Source: Thermoplasmata archaeon
GTDB taxonomy: Archaea > Thermoplasmatota > Thermoplasmata > SG8-5
Direction of reading: 5' to 3'
DNA: 10,630 nucleotides
Assembly (NCBI GenBank): GCA_023136815.1
Contig: JAGLQM010000020.1
Coordinates: 1-10,630, forward strand
The notes below the pieces were generated by a model. That model did no database searches. It was not told the DNA's origin and worked only from the letters and a program-made list of their open reading frames with translations. A program made the translations under genes and the position numbers. Below are positions 291 to 10,630 of the stretch, piece after piece (the first letter of the stretch is position 1; each line of letters begins with the position of its first letter).

Positions 291-1409
291 ATGCAGAATC
301 CAGCCATGGGAATAATAGAAGACCAAATTCAGGAAATTCAAGACGAAATAGACAAGACCAAGAAGAACAAGGCTACAATGCACCATCTGGGAAAGTTGAA
401 GGCTAAAATTTCCCGAATGCGTGATGAGGCTGAAAAGAGAGCATCGGCTGGCGGAGGCACTGGCCGAACCTATGCTGTGAGAAAAACCGGCAATGCAACG
501 ATTGGTTTTGTTGGCTTTCCCAGTGTCGGTAAGAGCACTCTGCTAACCAAGATAACAGATGCAAAGAGCGAGATAGGAGCCTATGAGTTCACCACACTGG
601 ATGTTATTCCAGGGGTAATGAATCTTCACGGTGCGAAAATCCAGGTTCTGGACATGCCTGGAATGGTAAGAGGTGCTGCAACTGGCCGTGGCCGCGGTAA
701 AGAAATTCTATCGGTTATTCGTTCCCTGGATTTAATCATGCTTTTTCTGGATGTATTCAATCCACAACTTGAAGCACTTACCAAGGAACTTGAAGCTGCG
801 GCCATACGCTTGAATGGCCGCCCTCCTGATATTAACATTTCAAAACGTGACAGAGGCGGAATAGAAATTCACAGCACCGTGAAACTTACCCACATTGACG
901 AGGATCTGGCCACAGATATAGTGAAAGAATATGGATACATCAGCGCAGATGTTGTAATCCGCGAAGATGTTACAACCGATCAGTTAATTGATTTTCTTTC
1001 CAGCAATAGAATGTATATTCCAGCAATTCTGGTTCTCAACAAAATCGATTTAATGGATGAATATTCCTTGAATGAACTCGAGAAAAGGTTCAGCAACTGG
1101 AAGATAATTCCAATATCCGCAGATGCAGAAATTGGAATACAGGATTTCAAGGACATTGTATACAGTACACTGAAATTCATTAATATTTACATGAAACCCC
1201 AGGGCAAGCCAGCAGACATGGATGAGCCAATGGTTATAACGGCGGGTTCGACAGTTGGGAACGTATGCGCAGGTATTCATCGCGACTTCCAGAACAAGTT
1301 CAGGTACGCAAAAGTCTGGGGTCCAAGTTCGAAATTCCCGGGCCAGACTGTTGGATTGGACCATGTGCTGCAGAATGATGACATTTTGACCATTGTTATT
1401 AAACGGTAA
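291..1409 (+). CDS. drg: DRG/Rbg-family GTP-binding protein (Obg-like GTPase)
   Basis: Archaeal relative of eukaryotic developmentally regulated GTP-binding proteins. The family binds and hydrolyses GTP in the cytoplasm and is associated with ribosomes and translation. Of 372 residues, the N-terminal helical part (about 1-66) carries the family signature NKATMHHLGKLKAKI. The G domain follows: P-loop GFPSVGKS (75-82), DMPG (121-124), NKID (250-253) and the ISA of G5 (275-277), with the DRG-specific insertion between DMPG and NKID. A C-terminal TGS domain (about 313-372) ends with the typical GLDHVLQNDDILTIV. Length is normal for the family. The start at 291 fits TATA spacing; homologues usually begin at the residue here numbered Met6 (base 306), so 306 is a real alternative. 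The gene stands alone and converges on the HPS-RraA gene. Confidence 0.95.
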   Translation: MQNPAMGIIEDQIQEIQDEIDKTKKNKATMHHLGKLKAKISRMRDEAEKRASAGGGTGRTYAVRKTGNATIGFVGFPSVGKSTLLTKITDAKSEIGAYEFTTLDVIPGVMNLHGAKIQVLDMPGMVRGAATGRGRGKEILSVIRSLDLIMLFLDVFNPQLEALTKELEAAAIRLNGRPPDINISKRDRGGIEIHSTVKLTHIDEDLATDIVKEYGYISADVVIREDVTTDQLIDFLSSNRMYIPAILVLNKIDLMDEYSLNELEKRFSNWKIIPISADAEIGIQDFKDIVYSTLKFINIYMKPQGKPADMDEPMVITAGSTVGNVCAGIHRDFQNKFRYAKVWGPSSKFPGQTVGLDHVLQNDDILTIVIKR

Positions 1410-1486
1410 TCTTATGTTCCAGCAATCCGAGACATGATTCCTCGGCCTGGAAGGATAGTAGAATTATTGGAGTGACCCCCTTTTAA

Positions 1487-1531
1487 CCCAAGTTTGACAA
1501 AAAAGTTTATGATTGAAATGTCAAACGTGGG
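1487..1531. repeat. Interrupted palindrome, 13-base arms with 19-base spacer
   Basis: The left arm CCCAAGTTTGACA (1487-1499) and right arm TGTCAAACGTGGG (1519-1531) are complementary at 12 of 13 positions. The core TTTGACA/TGTCAAA is perfect. A closely similar arrangement, TTTGAC(G)-19 bases-TGTCAAAGTTGGGAT, occurs at 4628-4669 upstream of the giant gene. Possible readings are a protein-binding dyad, a terminator-like hairpin, or the abutting ends of transposable-element remnants. The sequence does not decide between them. Confidence 0.75.
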
Positions 1532-1609
1532 ATACCCCATCTGGGTATGCTGAACAATGAGTTAGTTTGTCAAGTTGGTTAATCAGTGAAAGAAAGTTTG
1601 ATGATTATA

Positions 1610-1651
1610 GTTGAATACTTAACCTTTAGAACTTAAGAAGACGTATTCAAC
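1610..1651. repeat. Inverted repeat GTTGAATAC / GTATTCAAC
   Basis: The nine-base arms at 1610-1618 and 1643-1651 are perfectly complementary. The stem can extend inward with TTAA at 1619-1622 and 1633-1636 if bases 1637-1642 bulge out. It lies between convergent genes and may serve as a terminator hairpin. It could also be part of a degenerate mobile element. Confidence 0.6.
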
Positions 1652-1652
1652 A

Positions 1653-1702
1653 TATAGATCACGAACCCTATAAGTATCAATTAAAATAGGTTCGTGACTA
1701 TA
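1653..1702. repeat. Long inverted repeat (hairpin) in convergent gap
   Basis: TATAG-A-TCACGAACC-C-TA (1653-1670) pairs with TAGGTTCGTGACTATA (1687-1702). Sixteen base pairs form with two single-base bulges around a 16-base AT-rich loop. The core TCACGAACC/GGTTCGTGA is nine perfect pairs. Its place 42 bases past the HPS-RraA stop codon fits a terminator or 3'-end structure for that gene. It could also be a mobile-element terminal repeat. Confidence 0.65.
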
Positions 1703-1744
1703 AACGTGATGTCAATTTTCTAGCTGTGTCGATTGGGATAAATT

Positions 1745-3034
1745 TTACTGCTTCTCCCACTTCTTAACATCAATAACCTGAGAAAGAGTACTGCCCCTGC
1801 GTATCTCTTCACGAATACGGCCTTCCTTTTCCATTACATCCAGGGAACGATTGGCAATCTCCACGGCATCCTTCTGTGGGACAACAACAACACCGCTTTC
1901 ATCACCTACAATCCAGTCGCCTGGACAGACTGTCTGATTGCCGCATTTTATTTGAACATTTATCTCCCCGAAGCCTTTTGGTTCTCCGGCTGCAGAGCAC
2001 CTGTGCCTGGCAAATGCCGGAAAGTTCAGGTTCAAAATAGAATCAACATCCCGAATTGCACCGTCAATGACTATTCCAGTTATTCCTTTCTGCTTGCAGC
2101 TTTCCGATGCCAGTTCTCCCCATATTGCAGTTTCTCCGCCATTTACATCGCAGACAATAACATCACCTTTGTTTGCAATCTCAATTGCTTCAACTGCCTT
2201 GGCCCAGTCCCCGTCCATTGTTCTGACAGTAACTGCCTGGCCAATCATTTTTTGGCCGTGATTAATAATTGGAAGTATGCCGGTCATTGGGCCATGAGTA
2301 TGCATGGCATCTGCAATATTGCAGCTTGATACCTTTGAAAATGCTTCACGAATTTCTTCTGGGCCATATTTTTTAAAGTGCTGGCTGACTATTGGTTTCA
2401 TATCCGCGATGGATTGAATAATGTCTATTGTGGCTCCTGCAATATCTTGAGCTTTGGTTATTGCGCCACCGATGATGATTATTGAAGCACCATTCTCAAC
2501 TGCTGGTGCTGCGGATTCCGAGTTAATTCCTCCGGCAACAGCAATAGGAATGTCAACAACTTCCGAGACTGCCTTAACATCTGCCAGTGGGTTTCCGCCT
2601 ACCATTTGCTCATCAATACTCACATGAATGCAGACATAATCAACACCAAGCGCAGCAACTTCCTTTGCCCTTGCTGGCTTATCTTCAACCTGCATCATGT
2701 CAATCATGATTTTGGAGCCGTACTGCCTTGCAGACTTTACTGCTTCAGTTATTGTAGAATCTTCAGAAATACCCATGATTGTGATTACACTGGCCCCGGA
2801 TTTTGTGGCAATTTCCACCTCAAGTCCACCGGTGTCCATTGTCTTCAGGTCTGCGACTATCGTGTACTGGGGAAATTTGGCTCTCAACTGGCGTATAATA
2901 TCCATTCCCTCTGCCTTAATCAGCGGGGTTCCTGCCTCCAGCCAGTCAATTCCACCTTCCACTGTTTCAGCGGCTATCTGTAATGCCCGATGGGCATCCA
3001 CAAGGTCCAGTGCCACTTGGGTAATTACCTTCAT
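1745..3034 (-). CDS. Bifunctional 3-hexulose-6-phosphate synthase / RraA-like domain fusion
   Basis: The N-terminal half (about 1-210) is a hexulose-6-phosphate synthase TIM barrel of the orotidine-phosphate-decarboxylase superfamily. It opens with QVALDL and carries the catalytic DLKTMDTG stretch (Asp62, Lys64, Asp67) and the phosphate-binding AVAGGI and IIIIGGAIT loops. Known role: reversible condensation of formaldehyde with ribulose 5-phosphate; many archaea lacking the oxidative pentose phosphate path run it in reverse to make ribulose 5-phosphate. The C-terminal half (about 215-429) is RraA-like, with CNIADAM, GELAS (306-310), DGAIRD and GDWIVGDESGVVVVP, the fold shared by RNase E regulators and hydroxymethyl-oxoglutarate aldolases; its role in such fusions is uncertain. 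The chosen ATG at 3034 gives 429 residues and begins where the family begins. An ATG at 3061 would add nine residues. The TraB gene lies 52 bases upstream on the same strand. Confidence 0.92.
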   Translation of the reverse strand: MKVITQVALDLVDAHRALQIAAETVEGGIDWLEAGTPLIKAEGMDIIRQLRAKFPQYTIVADLKTMDTGGLEVEIATKSGASVITIMGISEDSTITEAVKSARQYGSKIMIDMMQVEDKPARAKEVAALGVDYVCIHVSIDEQMVGGNPLADVKAVSEVVDIPIAVAGGINSESAAPAVENGASIIIIGGAITKAQDIAGATIDIIQSIADMKPIVSQHFKKYGPEEIREAFSKVSSCNIADAMHTHGPMTGILPIINHGQKMIGQAVTVRTMDGDWAKAVEAIEIANKGDVIVCDVNGGETAIWGELASESCKQKGITGIVIDGAIRDVDSILNLNFPAFARHRCSAAGEPKGFGEINVQIKCGNQTVCPGDWIVGDESGVVVVPQKDAVEIANRSLDVMEKEGRIREEIRRGSTLSQVIDVKKWEKQ

Positions 3035-3086
3035 ATAAATCCCTATTAAGTGTCTGGGCATAAAAATCTATCGTTAAATCATAATC

Positions 3087-3779
3087 TCATATATTGAACG
3101 AATAGGAAACCGACGTTTCATCCTTCTTTTCCGGCTGCCAGTCTCTGACTTCCTTGAGCCGAATAAGCTTGAGTTCCCTATCTTTCAGAAGTTCTGACAT
3201 GCCGGGGATATGGCCGTCCCCCACAAGTGCCAATACCGTTTCATGTTTTTCTTCCAGTTCTCTAAGGTTCTTTGCCATGTGAATATTTCTATCATCAATA
3301 AGCACTTTTTTAAGGGTTGGAAATGACTTGCCTGCATCTTCAATAAAGCTCTCGCCTTCTTCCTGGTATCTTTCCAATTCTTTTTCAACTGTTTTTTTTC
3401 GCACAAAAGGAAGAGCCATTATGGCACTCCACCATTTCATTCTCTCCTTTAAGGTCATTTGTTTTTTAAATCGAACAACAACTTCCAAAATATTCATGTC
3501 AATTAGATATAGTGTGGCGTTTATTTCATTGGCTGCCACAAAACCAGCAACCATCTCATCCCCTGCCTGAACCCCAAAGTCATCGGCAATTCTTGCCTGG
3601 AATTTGGCAAGCATGCCTTTTGGCTCCGGTACTGGCTTCCCCTGAGCACGTGCTTTGACATACTTGAATCTGTTTCCATCCAGTTCCAGACCAACAGCCA
3701 CTGGTACATGTTCCTGGATTATCTGGCGCACTTGTTCTGCAATATCGAACACATGACCCACGCCAACAAGGATTATCAT
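3087..3779 (-). CDS. TraB/PrgY-family protein (short, soluble form)
   Basis: The 230 residues carry TraB-family motifs in order: an N-terminal VGVGHV (5-10, with His9), GLELDGNRF (30-38), VLIDDRNIHMA (159-169) and VGDGHIPGM (186-194). Conserved His and acidic residues in these motifs are thought to form a metal site; TraB relatives include pheromone-inhibiting PrgY and the Tiki proteases, but the archaeal role is not established. Many archaeal TraB proteins have C-terminal membrane segments. None is visible here, and the chain ends in a charged tail. The ATG at 3779 is chosen because a TTTTATAG box lies about 26 bases upstream and homology starts there; an in-frame TTG at 3791 is less likely. 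It may be co-transcribed with HPS-RraA, 52 bases downstream. Confidence 0.85.
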   Translation of the reverse strand: MIILVGVGHVFDIAEQVRQIIQEHVPVAVGLELDGNRFKYVKARAQGKPVPEPKGMLAKFQARIADDFGVQAGDEMVAGFVAANEINATLYLIDMNILEVVVRFKKQMTLKERMKWWSAIMALPFVRKKTVEKELERYQEEGESFIEDAGKSFPTLKKVLIDDRNIHMAKNLRELEEKHETVLALVGDGHIPGMSELLKDRELKLIRLKEVRDWQPEKKDETSVSYSFNI

Positions 3780-3800
3780 TGGCCTACCCAATGATTTTGA

Positions 3801-3808
3801 CTATAAAA
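3801..3808 (-). promoter_or_regulatory. TATA box candidate for the TraB-family gene
   Basis: On the minus strand this reads TTTTATAG, centred about 25.5 bases before the ATG at 3779, so the transcript would begin at or next to the start codon. No Shine-Dalgarno sequence is seen. It lies 21 bases from the oppositely oriented box of the HAD gene, forming a compact divergent promoter. Confidence 0.5.
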
Positions 3809-3829
3809 TCCTGTTTGTTCATCCAAAGG

Positions 3830-3837
3830 TTATAATA
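3830..3837 (+). promoter_or_regulatory. TATA box candidate for the HAD phosphatase gene
   Basis: TTATAATA is centred about 27.5 bases before the ATG at 3861, again consistent with a leaderless mRNA. There is no Shine-Dalgarno sequence in the short interval between them. Confidence 0.5.
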
Positions 3838-3860
3838 TCTTTTTTGAATACCAGCATTAT

Positions 3861-4502
3861 ATGAAATATGACATGGTTGCCTTTGACCTGGACGGAGTGA
3901 TAGTTGCCGAACGCAGCTCATGGGAATGGGTGCATTCTCATTTTGGTGTGGATAATTCTCACTCGCTTGAGGCATTCTGCAATGGGGAAATCGATGACAT
4001 GGAATTTATGCGTTCGGATATTGCAATGTGGCATGACGTGAATCCCGACATTAATATCTGCCAAATCAAGGAAATCTTGCTCAAGGCTACCATAAACAAG
4101 GGTTCTGTGGAAACCATTCAGACACTGAAAAAACAAGGAGTCAAGACCTGCATAATCAGCGGTGGAATTGATCTGCTGGCTGAACATATTGGCAGGGAAT
4201 GCGGCGTGGACAAGGTAATGTCAAATGGCTTCTGTGTCGATAAAAACGGAAAATTGCTGGGTGAAGGAATTCTCCGAGTTAAGTTAAGAGATAAGGCCAG
4301 TGTCCTCTGCCAGATGCTCAAGGAATTTGATGTTGCGCCGGAACGATGTGCCGCAATTGGAAATAGCTGGGTAGATATTTCCATGTTCGAGGTTGCAAAA
4401 TTCGGAATTGCTTTTAATCCCATTGATGGCGAGACAATAACCGCAGCAGATGTGACTGTGGAATCGGATGATTTGAGAGATGTTTTGCAGTATTTGGAGT
4501 AG
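3861..4502 (+). CDS. HAD-superfamily phosphatase, phosphoserine-phosphatase (SerB) like
   Basis: The 213-residue chain has the haloacid dehalogenase core. Motif I is FDLDGVI, with nucleophile Asp9 and acid/base Asp11. A helical cap of SerB type spans about 15-75. Motif II is IISGG with Ser100, motif III Lys145 in RDKASVL, and motif IV AIGNSWVDISMF (165-176). The family hydrolyses small phosphate esters in the cytoplasm with Mg2+ through an aspartyl-phosphate intermediate. The order and spacing resemble phosphoserine phosphatase, but the substrate cannot be read from sequence. Motif IV has Asn168 where the GDxxxD form has its first Asp; Asp172 is kept. The start fits the TATA spacing and places motif I at the usual distance from the N-terminus. 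The gene is divergent from TraB, with 81 bases between starts. Confidence 0.88.
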   Translation: MKYDMVAFDLDGVIVAERSSWEWVHSHFGVDNSHSLEAFCNGEIDDMEFMRSDIAMWHDVNPDINICQIKEILLKATINKGSVETIQTLKKQGVKTCIISGGIDLLAEHIGRECGVDKVMSNGFCVDKNGKLLGEGILRVKLRDKASVLCQMLKEFDVAPERCAAIGNSWVDISMFEVAKFGIAFNPIDGETITAADVTVESDDLRDVLQYLE

Positions 4503-4796: not shown

Positions 4797-7700
4797 ATGA
4801 AAATAGCATCTTTACTTAACCGTAAGAATAAGAACATAACAGTATTTGCAGTGTTCGCAGTTGCAGTAATGCTTTTGCCGATTGCTTCTGCATTTGTGAA
4901 TCCAACGGATTGGATTGTGGATGTAAATTCACTCCCAGTTACTGAGACCTGGGACATCTTGGAAGCTGGGCCAGTGAACTTGAAATTCCAAGGAATTTCT
5001 GAACCTATAATGCTCAAGATTTACCTTGAGAATACCAGTCCTGTTAATGGCTCCTCCTTCGGATCCTTTGGCTCAATAGAATCAGATAATTCGATATTCA
5101 TTATTAAAAGAACACCAAGTGACAATAATGCAACTATCTATTTTCAAGCATCTATTGGTATGACCGTTCGAATTGAGAAAATCACTAATGGTAACCATAT
5201 TGAAGGTTATGATGATTGTGTGTTAAAAGGAAACACATATCCTGGAAAATTCAATATTGCAGACAATCCAGAATATGCAGAAACACATGAAGATTATGAG
5301 CTTTCCTTGACAATTCCAGGACTTTATAATCATTCTCTGGAGATTCTCACCGATGAAACCATCTCATTCTTCGCCATTACAAATGGCAGTATCTCCCTCT
5401 TTGATGTAATGAACGATGATACCACACCTTATGAACCAGCATTCCCACTCTTCTTACCTGTTGGAACTTCCCAGGTTACTTTGAGGTCAAAGACTGAATC
5501 GGAGGTTACTATAATTATCCGTTCCAATGTATCAAATGCCCACTCAACACCCAACAACTTTGAATTGAATTGGTTGGGGGCCAAAAACCTCCGGGTAACT
5601 GATGACTCGATCATGCAGAACATGCCGCAGATTTATGTGGACATAAACGAGAAAATTCATGTAGTATGGTTTGAGGTGGACGTATTGACAAATAAATCGT
5701 ATATTTATTATAAAAGAAGCGATGATCTTGGCATAACCTGGACTGCTCCCTCTCTGGTGGTAAGTAGGAATTTCCAAGTTATCAAATATCTTACACTTGA
5801 AGGTGAGGGTAATTTCCTTGCAATTGCATGGCAAGAGCAGAGCATATATTTCCCTGAACCAAATCCTGGTCTCATGTATTCTACATTGAGTAATAATAGT
5901 GGAGCTAGCTGGACAATGCCGGCTGAATGGGCACCGGGATGGATCAACCCTGCCATAGATGTTACGAATAATGGAGATATTTATTTCGTGATATCATCAG
6001 GATCGCCTGCGGTTGCTGGCCCGGCTAAACTTTATTATAAATCCAATGGCGGCGGTCTGCAGGAACAATACACGTTTTTGGGCCCGGACAGTGAATATAT
6101 CTCTGGAGTTCCAAGCATAATTGTAAACGGGGCTGAAATTCATGTCACCATAGCGGATTACGCCAGTTCCTATATCTATTACTGGCACCACAATGGAGAA
6201 GGCTGGATTTCAGAAGCGGCAATGATCACCCAGTACAATGGAGATCCGGAACTCGGCCAGATGGATCTTGGAATCAATGGTGATGAATTGTTCATCGTGT
6301 GGAGCGATAATCGGGACGGCCAGTATGATATATATTACAAAAAACAACGTGACGGCACCTGGACCGATGATATCCGGGTTACCAGTACAGATGCGGATTC
6401 AACGAATCCAAAGCTCGCCATAGGATCATCCAATGTGGCAGGAGTTCACCTCGTATGGCAGGAAAAGGATCAGAATGAAACTTCTGCACATTATCGAAGC
6501 CTGGAAGATGCTGGTAGTGTGATGATTACCAGGACCAAAATGTCTGGAGACTCTAATGATTCATATGAACCAAGCATTGCGATTGGTAACTCCGGTGGAT
6601 TTCATATGTGCTGGGTAGATGACAGACATGGCAGTTCCGAGGTATATTATGCAAACAGCGGCGTACCGATAATTAGCATGTCTACGCCCTTAATTCAAGA
6701 TAAGATGGTAACACCCGGCGACCCGGTTACAGTCAGTTCTACAGTTTACAATGACGGTAATGCAGCGGCTTATAATGTCCCGGTTAACTTCTATGCCTTC
6801 TCCGAAGAGGACCTCTTCGCGACAGTGGTCATTGACATACTTCCTGCACATTCCAGCAAGACCGTGAGTGCGACCTGGGACTCGCTTGAGGGTGATCATG
6901 AGATAATTGTTGCGATTGATTTCGATGACACGTTCTCTGATGGTGCTGCTTCCAGTTCTTCGATAGAAATCGCCGTCAATTTCCCGCCTGCTGCACAGGC
7001 CGCAGTTGACCACTGGTTGGCCGACATGATCACAAGTTCAGAGATTGAGGTCCAATCACTTATCAACAATACCTCGGAACAGCAGATTATAAGTTATCTG
7101 GAATGTGTTTTGTATCACCTCGGAGAGGCCTGGGACGACTGCTATAAATTTGAATATTACCAGGTGCTCGACCATATGACCGATGCCATGGCTTATCTGG
7201 AGTGTGCCGAATATGAATATACCTCTCCACCTCAGGAAATATATGATCTAATGGAATCCTTGTGCTATGCCATGGGTGATAAAACAACAACGTTCATTGA
7301 TTACATGGAATCCATGTATGGTTCAGACTCTTCCAATATCCTGACCGCACGGTCCAATTATGACTGTGCCATGAATTCTATTGCTTCTGGATGTTATGAA
7401 ACTTCAATTAATTATTTGATTTGTGCATATGATGGTGCAGCAAATCCTCTTGATGTCTGTAATATCTCCTTCGTGTCTTTCAAGGCGGAAAATGCGTCGG
7501 ATCCTGATGGCGACCTCGTATCATATTTCTGGGACTTTGGCAATGGCATTTACAGCCTTGGCAGTGAAGTTTCTCACCTTTTCCTGGCGATGGGAAATTA
7601 CGACGTTTCACTTGTAGTCACAGATGATGACGGCGCATCCTCCAATAGCAACATCTCCGTATCCATCGAGGACAGCTATTACTGGCCAGATGGTGTTCAT

Positions 7701-10630
7701 GCCTTCAGCTGGTGGTTCCATCAGGTTCGCCCCTGGAATTGGGATTGGGCCTCGCACCTGTGTACATCCTGGTGGTACATGGACTTCCCGTCCTGGTGGG
7801 ATGACGAACCTATCAAATGGAATTATGGCATTGACCTCAACGGCCGCATACACATGGTCAGCGAATGCTTTGACTGGGAATCCGTGGGATGGCTTCCTGA
7901 AGATAACAGCCTGCCCCAGAACATACTATATGATTCTAATGCAAATACAACAGATGAATTCTCCGAGATGGCATTCATTTCCAATTCATCTGCTGATTCC
8001 ATTAAACCGCAATTCGTTCTGGACATGAGAACAGATATCATGTATGTCTCATGGATCGAAGGCGGTTCTGCTCCTGAATTGGTTTATTCGTCCAGTGTTG
8101 ACTCTGGAGTTTCCTGGAGTGAATCTGAATTTATTTCCAGCATACCCTTTACGAACAATTATGACCTTCAAATGAAAATCGGAACATACTCCCGTCTTCA
8201 AAACCCCGTTTTGGATTCCATTGAGGGCAGTGCATTGTACTTCGACGGAATTGACGACTATGTTGACCTTGGCAACAGTGTGGAACTTCAAACGACAGGC
8301 GAGCTGACAATTGAGGCCTGGTTAAAGACATCAATCAATGACCGGTACATGGGTATCGGTGGTAAGCTGGCACTGAACCGGGTTGATTGCTGCCCGACCT
8401 ATTCTGGTTATGCCCTTTCCAAGCGATATTTTATTGGAGATGAGAATAACAGCAAGTTCCAGTTTCAGATAGAAGGCAACGGCACTGGTGAAATGATATA
8501 CAGTGACAATGCATACCTTGACGACGACTGGCATCACGTGGTTGGTGTTAGAAAACTGGTGGATGGGGTATACACAAACCTTCTTTATGTGGATGGCGTA
8601 AAACAATCCCAGGAAGGCATTGAAGATCTTGATGACAGCGGAGGCATCGCATTTATCGGCAGACAGTACAGTGATCTGGATTTACTACGTATGTGGAACG
8701 GGAGCATAGACGAGTTCCGCATCCTCGACAGAGCATTGAGCGATGGCGAGATTCTGTCGGATTACGAAAACGGCCTTGATCATGCATATGTCAGCCGTGA
8801 CGATACAACCGCATGGTATCATCTCAACAATGATGTGACAGACTCCTCGGGAAACGGAAATAACGGCACACTTCATGGGCCTGTATGGACCTCTATTGAG
8901 GGGCAGTCCATGTATTTCGACGGTGTCAAAGATTTCGTTTACTGCGGTAATGGAGAGGAACTTCAGATTATCGGCAATCTGACCCTTGAAGCATGGGTGC
9001 GCCCCTCTGTTCTTAATGAATACATGGGCATCGCCGGAAAATTCAGCATAGACACATCCTGGAACTATAATGGCTATTCCATGGCAAAGCATTCTAACAA
9101 TCACTTCAGGTTCCTGGTTGGAGGCGGCGGCAGCAGCTCCGAAATAATAGAGAGTGATCTGGCATATACCGATCTTGATTGGCACCATGTCGCTTTCGTG
9201 AGAAAATGTGTAAATGGCGTTTACAATAACCTCCTTTTCATCGATGGTGTCCGCCAGTCCCAGGAAGGCAGCAGTCACATGATAAACAGTGGAGAATTCG
9301 CCTTTATCGGAAGACAGTACAGCGATTATAATGCCAGATACTGGAAGGGCGATATTGATGAGGTTCGCTTGCTCAATGTCTCACTTTCCGATTCGGAGAT
9401 ACTGGCAGATTACAATGAAGGCCTTGCCAATAACAAGTACACTAGCATGCCTGGAACCGTATATTACAGGGATTTCAACCAGGAGATTGACGAAGATGTC
9501 AACCTCCCTGACGGAAGAAAACTCATGGCAACAGTCACCACGGTGTTTGGCAGCTTCGATTTCGAGATAATGTCTGACCATGATGGAGATAAGATACCCG
9601 ACACCCAGGATGACAATCCCGGAGAGTTTGACATTGATATGGATGTAAGCTTCCAGGTGGATGCGCAGCACATGTCCGATGACGCAGGCGCATCTGTGGC
9701 TCTTGATTTTGTGAACTATGCCAGCAACGTGACGATCGATGAATGCACATCTGTTCCTCCTGATCTTTCATCGAATGTGGGCGGCTGCTATGACATAAGT
9801 ATGACTGATTCGGTCTACTTCACCGCCGCGGTAAAGATCCAATACGTGGAAGATGACCTTCCGGCCGGTGTATTCGAGGAAACGCTCAGGATGTATTACT
9901 GGAATGGAACTGCCTGGATTGTAATACCAGACAGCGGCGTGAACTCCGACAACAACTATGTATGGTGTCTGGTGAACCATTTCACTATATTTGCCATCGG
10001 CGATTCATCGGATATGGATACGGACAGCGACACACTACCGGATTACTGGGAGATGACAAATGGTCTGAATTCGGGACAGATAAATTCGGAACTGGCAGAT
10101 GCAGATGGTGACGGTTTATATGACATTGAAGAATACAATATCGGAACAAACGCCAATAATACGGATTCAGATAACGACGGGTTGACTGATGGGCAGGAAT
10201 ACAACAATTATTTCCCTTACATCAGAGACATCACAGTCGATAAGAAATTATTCCAATCATCCTCTGAAACATATATTCCAATGAATGATCTCATTCCCGG
10301 TAGTTATACCGGGTCTGTTTATGGAATGGCCAATGTTAACAACTCGAGAGTTGATGATATCTCTGATGCCCTCAACCTCCTGATCGTTTATGATGACCGG
10401 ATCGAAAATGTACCGCTATCTGACTCATCTACAGGTACTGGGTCCGAGGAGTATTACAAGGAAATAGATGTGTCATATCAATTCCAATTCGAACTTGTCG
10501 ATGGATATGAACAGATATGGATCAGAGCAACCGATAAATTCGCGGAGCCTTCTGAATTCTATGTTTATCTCGACAGCATGGAATTGAAATACAAGGGCAG
10601 CGATCCCAACTCCGAAGATACCAGTAATAA
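4797..10630 (+). CDS. Giant secreted multidomain surface protein (propeller, CARDB, PKD, tandem LamG, TSP3-type repeats), 3' end beyond window
   Basis: The frame runs 1944 codons without a stop to the window edge. A signal peptide is clear: Lys/Arg-rich 1-12, hydrophobic 14-29, cleavage likely after ASA (32). Domains in order: a unique N-terminal region (33-280) rich in N-x-S/T sequons; seven propeller repeats (about 282-621), including a perfect Asp-box SDDLGITW (308-315); a CARDB-like domain (about 629-727); a helical module with eight Cys (728-888); a PKD domain (889-959, with SDPDGD and WDFGNG); a Trp-rich stretch (963-1008); orphan blade-like repeats with Asp-box SVDSGVSW (1100-1107); two LamG domains (about 1141-1329 and 1338-1546); Asp-rich calcium-binding-type repeats (1594-1608 and 1739-1802) around a beta-rich segment; and another beta-rich region to the edge. 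These modules bind carbohydrate, calcium or protein outside the cell, suggesting an adhesin or polysaccharide-binding role. No catalytic residues were identified. The C-terminal anchor is not visible. The start is supported by the Shine-Dalgarno sequence and signal peptide. Confidence 0.9.
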   Translation, partial: MKIASLLNRKNKNITVFAVFAVAVMLLPIASAFVNPTDWIVDVNSLPVTETWDILEAGPVNLKFQGISEPIMLKIYLENTSPVNGSSFGSFGSIESDNSIFIIKRTPSDNNATIYFQASIGMTVRIEKITNGNHIEGYDDCVLKGNTYPGKFNIADNPEYAETHEDYELSLTIPGLYNHSLEILTDETISFFAITNGSISLFDVMNDDTTPYEPAFPLFLPVGTSQVTLRSKTESEVTIIIRSNVSNAHSTPNNFELNWLGAKNLRVTDDSIMQNMPQIYVDINEKIHVVWFEVDVLTNKSYIYYKRSDDLGITWTAPSLVVSRNFQVIKYLTLEGEGNFLAIAWQEQSIYFPEPNPGLMYSTLSNNSGASWTMPAEWAPGWINPAIDVTNNGDIYFVISSGSPAVAGPAKLYYKSNGGGLQEQYTFLGPDSEYISGVPSIIVNGAEIHVTIADYASSYIYYWHHNGEGWISEAAMITQYNGDPELGQMDLGINGDELFIVWSDNRDGQYDIYYKKQRDGTWTDDIRVTSTDADSTNPKLAIGSSNVAGVHLVWQEKDQNETSAHYRSLEDAGSVMITRTKMSGDSNDSYEPSIAIGNSGGFHMCWVDDRHGSSEVYYANSGVPIISMSTPLIQDKMVTPGDPVTVSSTVYNDGNAAAYNVPVNFYAFSEEDLFATVVIDILPAHSSKTVSATWDSLEGDHEIIVAIDFDDTFSDGAASSSSIEIAVNFPPAAQAAVDHWLADMITSSEIEVQSLINNTSEQQIISYLECVLYHLGEAWDDCYKFEYYQVLDHMTDAMAYLECAEYEYTSPPQEIYDLMESLCYAMGDKTTTFIDYMESMYGSDSSNILTARSNYDCAMNSIASGCYETSINYLICAYDGAANPLDVCNISFVSFKAENASDPDGDLVSYFWDFGNGIYSLGSEVSHLFLAMGNYDVSLVVTDDDGASSNSNISVSIEDSYYWPDGVHAFSWWFHQVRPWNWDWASHLCTSWWYMDFPSWWDDEPIKWNYGIDLNGRIHMVSECFDWESVGWLPEDNSLPQNILYDSNANTTDEFSEMAFISNSSADSIKPQFVLDMRTDIMYVSWIEGGSAPELVYSSSVDSGVSWSESEFISSIPFTNNYDLQMKIGTYSRLQNPVLDSIEGSALYFDGIDDYVDLGNSVELQTTGELTIEAWLKTSINDRYMGIGGKLALNRVDCCPTYSGYALSKRYFIGDENNSKFQFQIEGNGTGEMIYSDNAYLDDDWHHVVGVRKLVDGVYTNLLYVDGVKQSQEGIEDLDDSGGIAFIGRQYSDLDLLRMWNGSIDEFRILDRALSDGEILSDYENGLDHAYVSRDDTTAWYHLNNDVTDSSGNGNNGTLHGPVWTSIEGQSMYFDGVKDFVYCGNGEELQIIGNLTLEAWVRPSVLNEYMGIAGKFSIDTSWNYNGYSMAKHSNNHFRFLVGGGGSSSEIIESDLAYTDLDWHHVAFVRKCVNGVYNNLLFIDGVRQSQEGSSHMINSGEFAFIGRQYSDYNARYWKGDIDEVRLLNVSLSDSEILADYNEGLANNKYTSMPGTVYYRDFNQEIDEDVNLPDGRKLMATVTTVFGSFDFEIMSDHDGDKIPDTQDDNPGEFDIDMDVSFQVDAQHMSDDAGASVALDFVNYASNVTIDECTSVPPDLSSNVGGCYDISMTDSVYFTAAVKIQYVEDDLPAGVFEETLRMYYWNGTAWIVIPDSGVNSDNNYVWCLVNHFTIFAIGDSSDMDTDSDTLPDYWEMTNGLNSGQINSELADADGDGLYDIEEYNIGTNANNTDSDNDGLTDGQEYNNYFPYIRDITVDKKLFQSSSETYIPMNDLIPGSYTGSVYGMANVNNSRVDDISDALNLLIVYDDRIENVPLSDSSTGTGSEEYYKEIDVSYQFQFELVDGYEQIWIRATDKFAEPSEFYVYLDSMELKYKGSDPNSEDTSN
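8217..9434 (+). repeat. Tandem LamG duplication inside the giant gene
   Basis: Two units, beginning SIEGSALYFDG (8217) and SIEGQSMYFDG (8892), are 225 codons apart. They share a series of blocks: ELTIEAW/NLTLEAW, YMGI, DDDWHHV/DLDWHHV, VDGVKQSQEG/IDGVRQSQEG, FIGRQYSD and a DYENGL/DYNEGL end. The DNA has diverged but keeps short identical tracts such as TCCCAGGAAGGCA. The second unit also has a leading strand motif, AWYHLNNDVTDSSGNGNNG, that has no obvious counterpart before the first. Confidence 0.85.

What the first reader, a model, noticed from the sequence alone, without database searches (positions are those of the whole stretch)
4797..10630. A single uninterrupted reading frame of at least 1944 codons fills over half the window
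I read frame 3 codon by codon from the ATG at 4797 to base 10628 and found no stop. The protein has a signal peptide and a long series of extracellular modules. The combination of seven-repeat propeller, CARDB, Cys-rich helical module, PKD, Trp-rich stretch, paired LamG and TSP3-type repeats is not one I recognise as a named family. The true C-terminus, with any sortase-like, PGF-type or membrane anchor, is off the edge.
Basis: partly seen in the sequence, partly recalled or inferred. Interest (0 to 1): 0.7.

Follow-up and report, generated by a model that had tools for sequence, protein, structure and literature searches.

The report
Start of a giant archaeal surface protein
The long open frame is real and is the first part of a giant secreted protein of Thermoplasmata archaea; complete relatives end in a membrane module that also occurs alone, varies, and is often paired with a small partner gene, a layout like bacterial contact-killing systems, although no killing has been shown.

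Summary
One frame of at least 1944 codons runs from 4797 to the contig end; the window is the whole 10,630-base contig. Propeller (seven blades), CARDB, PKD, Trp-rich stretch and paired LamG are supported; TSP3 is below cut-off. No named full-length family matches.

The frame is the N-terminal part of a giant. It is co-linear with a complete 5805-aa protein (VMTD01000102.1) and shares its N-domain with a complete 6014-aa one (CP070751.1). Relative to the first it carries a 447-aa double-LamG insertion and a Cys-rich insertion in its PKD.

Both complete giants end in an Ig-plus-amphipathic-helix domain and a multi-TM tail. This domain recurs in short cassettes whose tails vary. The next gene is a small 2-TM protein in 33 of 63 testable cases, against 14 of 263 background genes. 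In one case tail and partner sit together on a different constant domain. This resembles CDI ionophore/immunity systems. The window protein's own C-terminus is off the contig, so this is inferred for it; toxicity is untested.

The parts
4797..10628 (+). Open 5' part (at least 1944 aa) of a giant secreted protein; runs off the contig
4797..4892 (+). Signal-peptide-like N-terminus (hydrophobic segment 16-34)
   Evidence: hydropathy; cleavage near ASA|F read by eye
4824..5594 (+). N-terminal region of the giant family (model A1, includes the hydrophobic segment), no known family match
   Evidence: E 1.6e-121; no PDB sequence hit
5571..6662 (+). Seven-bladed Asp-box/BNR-type beta-propeller (about residues 259-622)
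   Evidence: two Asp-boxes; BNR_2 in relatives
6702..6941 (+). CARDB domain (636-715)
7005..7448 (+). Cys-rich insertion (about 737-884), probably helical, after the motif NFPPAA read as the first PKD strand; G003 and G023 have an unrelated insert at the same place
   Evidence: helices only in a low-confidence model
7449..7664 (+). PKD domain, remainder (885-956)
7665..7904 (+). Trp-rich stretch
7905..8180 (+). Second, partial set of propeller-like repeats (by eye, with one Asp-box), aligned in G003 and G023; not confirmed by structure
8181..9521 (+). About 447-aa insertion with two LamG domains (49% identical to each other), absent at this place in G003 and G023, which have LamG further downstream
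9522..10010 (+). Conserved module (1576-1738), fold unknown, looks beta-rich by eye
10011..10205 (+). First TSP3-like repeats (1739-1803)
   Evidence: (below cut-off)
10206..10628 (+). Start of the next conserved module, cut by the contig end

Best explanation
The frame encodes the N-terminal third or so of a giant secreted surface protein, expected to be 5,000-6,000 aa. Shown: it is co-linear with a complete 5805-aa relative in Thermoplasmata. Inferred: propeller, CARDB/PKD and LamG modules form a ligand-binding head on a long TSP3-containing rod, and the C-terminus sits in the membrane. In relatives the last 300-400 residues are an Ig-like plus amphipathic-helix 'constant' domain followed by a variable tail with several hydrophobic segments, in about half of cases encoded next to a small 2-TM partner. 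Most likely mechanism: a contact-dependent polymorphic effector. The head binds a neighbouring cell, the multi-TM tail is delivered into its membrane (ionophore or pore), and the cognate 2-TM protein protects the producer; stand-alone cassettes supply alternative tails. Binding, delivery, toxicity and immunity are all inferred, and the tail of the window protein itself has not been seen.
For: Giant relatives: WIN 17-733, 894-1128 and 1576-1942 align in order to G003 17-736, 854-1035 and 1040-1410 of a 5805-aa protein; G023 shows the first and last block. Both complete giants have a hydrophobic N-terminus and six C-terminal hydrophobic segments. A two-sequence model of the C-terminal region matched 24 of 400 class genomes. 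The 22-sequence model of the constant domain matched 63 of 400 at E<=1e-3, many only in the helical part, and 10 of 292 at 1e-10, 6 of them outside the class. Next gene a 2-TM small protein: set 1, 14 of 26 (background 11 of 148), rule made on this set; then with the rule unchanged: full domain 6 of 11 and partial domain 9 of 20 (background 3 of 84), other classes 4 of 6 (background 0 of 31). Swapping: the G173:C80 cassette has a constant domain 72% identical to a G230 cassette (tail 26%, partner 31%) but tail 76% and partner 95% identical to a G205 cassette whose constant domain is only 41%. Five of 28 pairs in that genus have constant domains of 67-79% with tails of 21-36% and partners of 20-33%. 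Tail and partner similarity covary over 31 pairs: Mantel r 0.91 (0 of 5000), one per genome (15) r 0.82 (27 of 5000). The own genome has a tail end, a 2-TM gene and a cassette on contig C194 in the order seen after the G003 giant. Bacterial CDI ionophores: five-helix toxins, two-helix immunity proteins (PMC11630599, passages including parts of the abstract).
Against: The window ends before the C-terminus, and no constant domain was found in its own fragmentary genome. Of five giants of 3,000 aa or more with a constant-domain match whose next gene I looked at, two have a 2-TM gene next (G003, G060) and three do not (G036; G110 and G090); G090 shows no TM tail. 30 of 63 testable genes have no 2-TM neighbour by the rule. 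Proteins scanned from tails and partners match no toxin or immunity family above cut-off. Transfer of tail plus partner onto a different constant domain rests on one pair of contigs and could be a misassembly. Mantel values are carried by three related pairs. TM calls are simple hydropathy.
Confidence: 0.5

Rival explanations
1. Ordinary giant adhesin or sheath protein: the multi-TM tail is only a membrane anchor, and the 2-TM protein is a dedicated membrane chaperone or docking partner that must match the anchor.
For: Recognised modules are adhesion-type; tail and partner are both hydrophobic and covary; no toxin family hit above cut-off; three of five giants lack the partner gene.
Against: Stand-alone cassettes, tandem arrays of tail plus partner, and abrupt loss of identity after a closely similar constant domain are not needed for an anchor.
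Confidence: 0.3
2. Kin or self/non-self recognition without killing, as one of the hypotheses proposed for VARTIG of Thermococcales: variable C-termini mark cell identity.
For: Variable C-terminus plus variable downstream membrane genes, as in VARTIG (PMC8416519, passages and section 13).
Against: The variable part looks membrane-embedded rather than surface-exposed (hydropathy); the partner covaries with it.
Confidence: 0.13
3. Extracellular enzyme of the sialidase or polysaccharide-lyase type used to degrade glycans.
For: Top Foldseek hits of the model are sialidases, with lyases further down.
Against: By VIA-align, lectins and integrins score about as high as or higher than the hydrolases and lyases listed; about 10% identity; catalytic residues were not checked.
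Confidence: 0.05

Closest known systems
CDI ionophore toxins CdiA-CT/CdiI (PMC11630599, passages)
   Same: Large surface protein, variable membrane-spanning C-terminus (five-helix there; several hydrophobic segments here), small variable membrane partner with two helices encoded with it.
   Different: No filamentous-haemagglutinin domain among the Pfam hits; Ig-plus-helix constant domain; the partner has a further soluble part; archaeal; activity unproven.
Polymorphic toxin systems (PMC3482391, passages)
   Same: C-terminal module varied, with stand-alone cassettes, behind a retained part.
   Different: No toxin or immunity domain recognised; that paper calls classical systems rare in archaea.
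VARTIG of Thermococcales (PMC8416519, passages and section 13)
   Same: Large secreted Ig/CARDB-type protein with hypervariable C-terminus, smaller C-terminal homologues downstream, many small TM genes.
   Different: Different order of archaea; the variable part there is an Ig domain with a sorting-like signal, here a multi-TM tail; its authors found no module closely resembling it in other archaea.
Giant proteins over 5000 aa (PMC11573180, passages)
   Same: Size class and adhesion-type domains; that paper found relatively few in archaea.
   Different: A size class, not a family; C-terminal exchange is not part of it.

Membership tests
Giant Thermoplasmata exoprotein family (defined here) | N-domain A1 plus propeller plus CARDB, co-linear with G003 | tested here: met
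Giant Thermoplasmata exoprotein family (defined here) | C-terminal constant domain plus multi-TM tail | not testable with these tools
   Contig ends at 10630; present in G003 and G036
Polymorphic toxin system | Variable C-terminus behind a conserved domain, with stand-alone cassettes | tested here: met
   In relatives only:
Polymorphic toxin system | Adjacent cognate partner exchanged together with the tail | tested here: inconclusive
   In relatives: enrichment and covariation, but transfer onto another constant domain in one pair only
Polymorphic toxin system | Tail is toxic and partner neutralises it | not testable with these tools
   needs an experiment
Polymorphic toxin system | Toxin or immunity domain known to the libraries (customary, not required) | tested here: not met
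   no hit above cut-off; new families cannot be excluded
CDI (CdiA) | Filamentous haemagglutinin repeats | tested here: not met
   none among Pfam hits of the window protein or of the three giants as far as they were scanned
CDI (CdiA) | VENN motif and CdiB transporter | not tested
   -
VARTIG | Hypervariable distal Ig domain with C-terminal DNNxxxGG sorting-like motif | not tested
   feature from PMC8416519; motif not scanned for
Sialidase/BNR enzyme | Propeller of the family with catalytic residues | tested here: inconclusive
   Fold hits; catalytic residues not checked

The most novel reading that the evidence does not exclude
Thermoplasmatota carry an undescribed archaeal polymorphic effector-immunity system in which giant 3,000-6,000-aa surface proteins present exchangeable ionophore-like membrane tails, each guarded by its own 2-TM protein and replenished from arrays of orphan tail cassettes; the window holds the head of one such protein.
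Probability: 0.45. Interest if true: 0.85.

Novelty: new variant of a known kind. Interest (0 to 1): 0.65.

Why it matters
Contact-dependent antagonism in archaea has few experimental cases (recalled; two titles seen in search listings). If right, this gives a testable family of membrane-targeting tails with matched partners, found in several lineages of Thermoplasmatota, and would explain part of the giant unannotated genes of these archaea. It also shows how such giants grow: whole modules are inserted into a conserved scaffold.

Tried and rejected
The second structure model (residues 622-1640) failed (mean pLDDT 32); only its CARDB part is usable, and the claim of a PKD split by an insert rests on alignment. 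The fold search did not test the N-terminal domain, because the propeller filled the list. A scan of genome contigs with the single protein found nothing; the alignment found three named records. The missing rest of the gene was sought in the own genome with 3000 of the last 3905 residues of the G003 giant: four matches, two of them to the window's own LamG pair, one to another LamG gene and one in C194, no continuation recognised. PADLOC gave nothing for the 10 proteins sent. NCBIfam hits TafC and CglD lie in the LamG and TSP3 parts, far below cut-off. Sub-threshold hits of partners (bPH_5 E 0.005 and bPH_2 E 0.06, PDR_assoc E 2e-4, STM3941 family 23 of 40 bits) are hints at most. A sub-threshold Pfam name hit on the C23 paralogue to an insecticidal-complex binding domain (17.4 bits against a cut-off of 32) was treated as chance. 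Chance as a source of the long frame is rejected. That the system is not in print rests on eight searches of the open library, seen as listings except for the papers cited by passages; Makarova 2019, mBio.00715-19, on archaeal polymorphic toxins is not held and is only recalled, so overlap with it cannot be excluded.

Full report
What is in the window. The window is the whole of contig C113 of a 949,536-base, 61%-complete genome in 210 contigs. A frame of 1944 codons starts at ATG 4797 and is open at the contig end. The four genes before it look like housekeeping genes: a DRG/Obg-type GTPase (291-1409), a hexulose-phosphate synthase/RraA fusion (3061-1745), a TraB-family protein (3791-3087) and a phosphoserine-phosphatase-like HAD protein (3861-4502). 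One related giant comes from a record named Thermoplasmata archaeon (CP070751.1). It is the giant of G036, which the tool places in the same class as the window's genome, so the source is most likely a Thermoplasmata archaeon.

The gene is the start of a giant. Searching 61 genomes (the own one and relatives) with the protein found long matches in a 5829-codon frame (G003) and in one reported as 6446 codons (G023). After reading the contigs, G003 has a complete 5805-codon gene and G036 a complete 6014-codon one. G023 is readable for about 3,700 residues, after which its contig is withheld. By BLASTP, G003 matches the window protein at 17-733 (33%), 894-1128 (23%) and 1576-1942 (32%) in the same order, with only four G003 residues between the last two blocks. 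So about 447 residues, holding two LamG domains 49% identical to each other, are inserted in the window protein where G003 and G023 have none; those two carry LamG further downstream. Likewise, between CARDB and PKD the window protein has a Cys-rich stretch and G003 and G023 an unrelated one. The own genome holds the beginning of a second giant, 41% identical over residues 1-722, cut by the contig end. The N-terminal domain was found in 8 of 400 class genomes, 4 of them strongly, so the family is patchy.

The far end. G003 and G036 end in a shared region without a Pfam match above cut-off: a part that looks like an Ig-type beta domain, amphipathic helices and six hydrophobic segments. A model of it matches 24 of 400 class genomes, mostly in frames under 1,000 codons. 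A 22-sequence model of the constant part matches 63 of 400 class genomes at E<=1e-3, many only in the helical part, and 10 of 292 phylum genomes at 1e-10, 6 of them outside the class. Neighbourhoods show arrays: constant domain plus tail, then a 130-265-aa protein with two hydrophobic segments near its N-terminus. I wrote the rule for this after seeing set 1 (22 loci), so set 1 is not independent: 14 of 26 testable of 30 genes, background 11 of 148 (p 1e-7). Four further genes of set 1 are followed first by a detached TM frame and then by a 2-TM gene, and one has a partly withheld neighbour; all five count as misses. With the rule unchanged, 25 further regions taken from the listing gave 6 of 11 (full domain) and 9 of 20 (under 90 model positions) against 3 of 84 (p 4e-5 and 1e-5). 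Some of these come from genomes already in set 1. Seven of the eight places outside the class gave 4 of 6 against 0 of 31 (p 2e-4). Genes whose 3' end or neighbour was off the contig or region (4, 1 and 1) were left out. In all, 33 of 63 against 14 of 263.

Exchange. In 5 of 28 pairs within one genus, constant domains of 67-79% identity carry tails of 21-36% and partners of 20-33%. One pair shows the converse: tail 76%, partner 95%, constant domain only 41%. Across 31 pairs, tail and partner similarity covary (Mantel r 0.91, 0 of 5000 permutations; partial on the constant domain, 20 pairs, r 0.96, 1 of 5000; one per genome, 15 pairs, r 0.82, 27 of 5000). Three pairs of related tails carry most of this. 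The G003 giant and the stand-alone cassette just downstream of it agree at 60-97% in 40-column windows from about residue 5172 to 5492, apart from a gapped stretch around 5292-5352 (12-57%), and at 10-37% beyond about 5512. The 172-aa 2-TM gene between them overlaps the end of the giant by 17 bases. On the own genome's contig C194 a tail end, a 2-TM gene and a cassette lie in the same order; among the loci I had fetched, tail end and 2-TM protein have their best matches in one and the same G023 cassette and its neighbour. Whether C194 belongs to the window gene is unknown.

Reading. Exchangeable membrane tails with matched 2-TM partners behind a giant adhesive head look like bacterial CDI ionophore systems: five-helix toxins, two-helix immunity proteins, partners about 30% identical within a group (PMC11630599, passages). 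The resemblance is in layout; no shared sequence family was found. I therefore say that it works like, not that it is a member of, those systems. VARTIG of Thermococcales is the nearest archaeal module that I found in print, and its authors found nothing closely like it in other archaea (PMC8416519, passages and section 13). My odds: that the window protein is the head of a giant of this family, about 0.95; that its unseen tail is of this type, about 0.8; that such tails are effectors with cognate immunity, about 0.65; together about 0.5.

Limits. Everything about the C-terminus comes from relatives. Of five giants of 3,000 aa or more with a constant-domain match whose next gene I looked at, G003 and G060 have a 2-TM gene next and G036, G110 and G090 do not. 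TM segments come from a simple hydropathy window. The PH-like assignment of the partner's soluble part is sub-threshold. Most genomes used are in many contigs, in which repeats can misassemble.

Noticed in passing
G000:C23:2-2248 (L003): Start of a second giant in the same genome, 41% identical to the window protein over residues 1-722, cut by the contig end.
   Followed up: partly
G000:C194 (L088) 1382-4079: Tail end, 2-TM gene and a stand-alone cassette in the own genome, in the order seen downstream of the G003 giant.
   Followed up: partly
L108:116-2650, L090:1762-2112, G007:C48:17630-19723 (L087), L088:1382-2446: Four cassettes or cassette fragments share a basic N-terminus (HKRR-like, then SFPNN and RPRRKKV-like), matched by BLAST; the string FPNN does not occur in the six long proteins checked. 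Meaning unknown.
   Followed up: partly
L087, L090, L095, L097, L109: Six genes in five loci carry an acylphosphatase-like motif next to cassettes; the two sent to Pfam match Acylphosphatase (E 5e-22, 2e-19) and continue into a coiled-coil-like part.
   Followed up: partly
L103 (G230:C49): Small genes that look PIN-domain-like by eye lie between cassettes of the largest array.
   Followed up: no
window:1745-3061: Hexulose-6-phosphate synthase/RraA fusion, a known fusion (NF005442, above cut-off).
   Followed up: no
G036 (CP070751.1): A 5.16-Mb Thermoplasmata chromosome, the largest genome listed, with several long frames matched by PKD, LamG or propeller parts.
   Followed up: no
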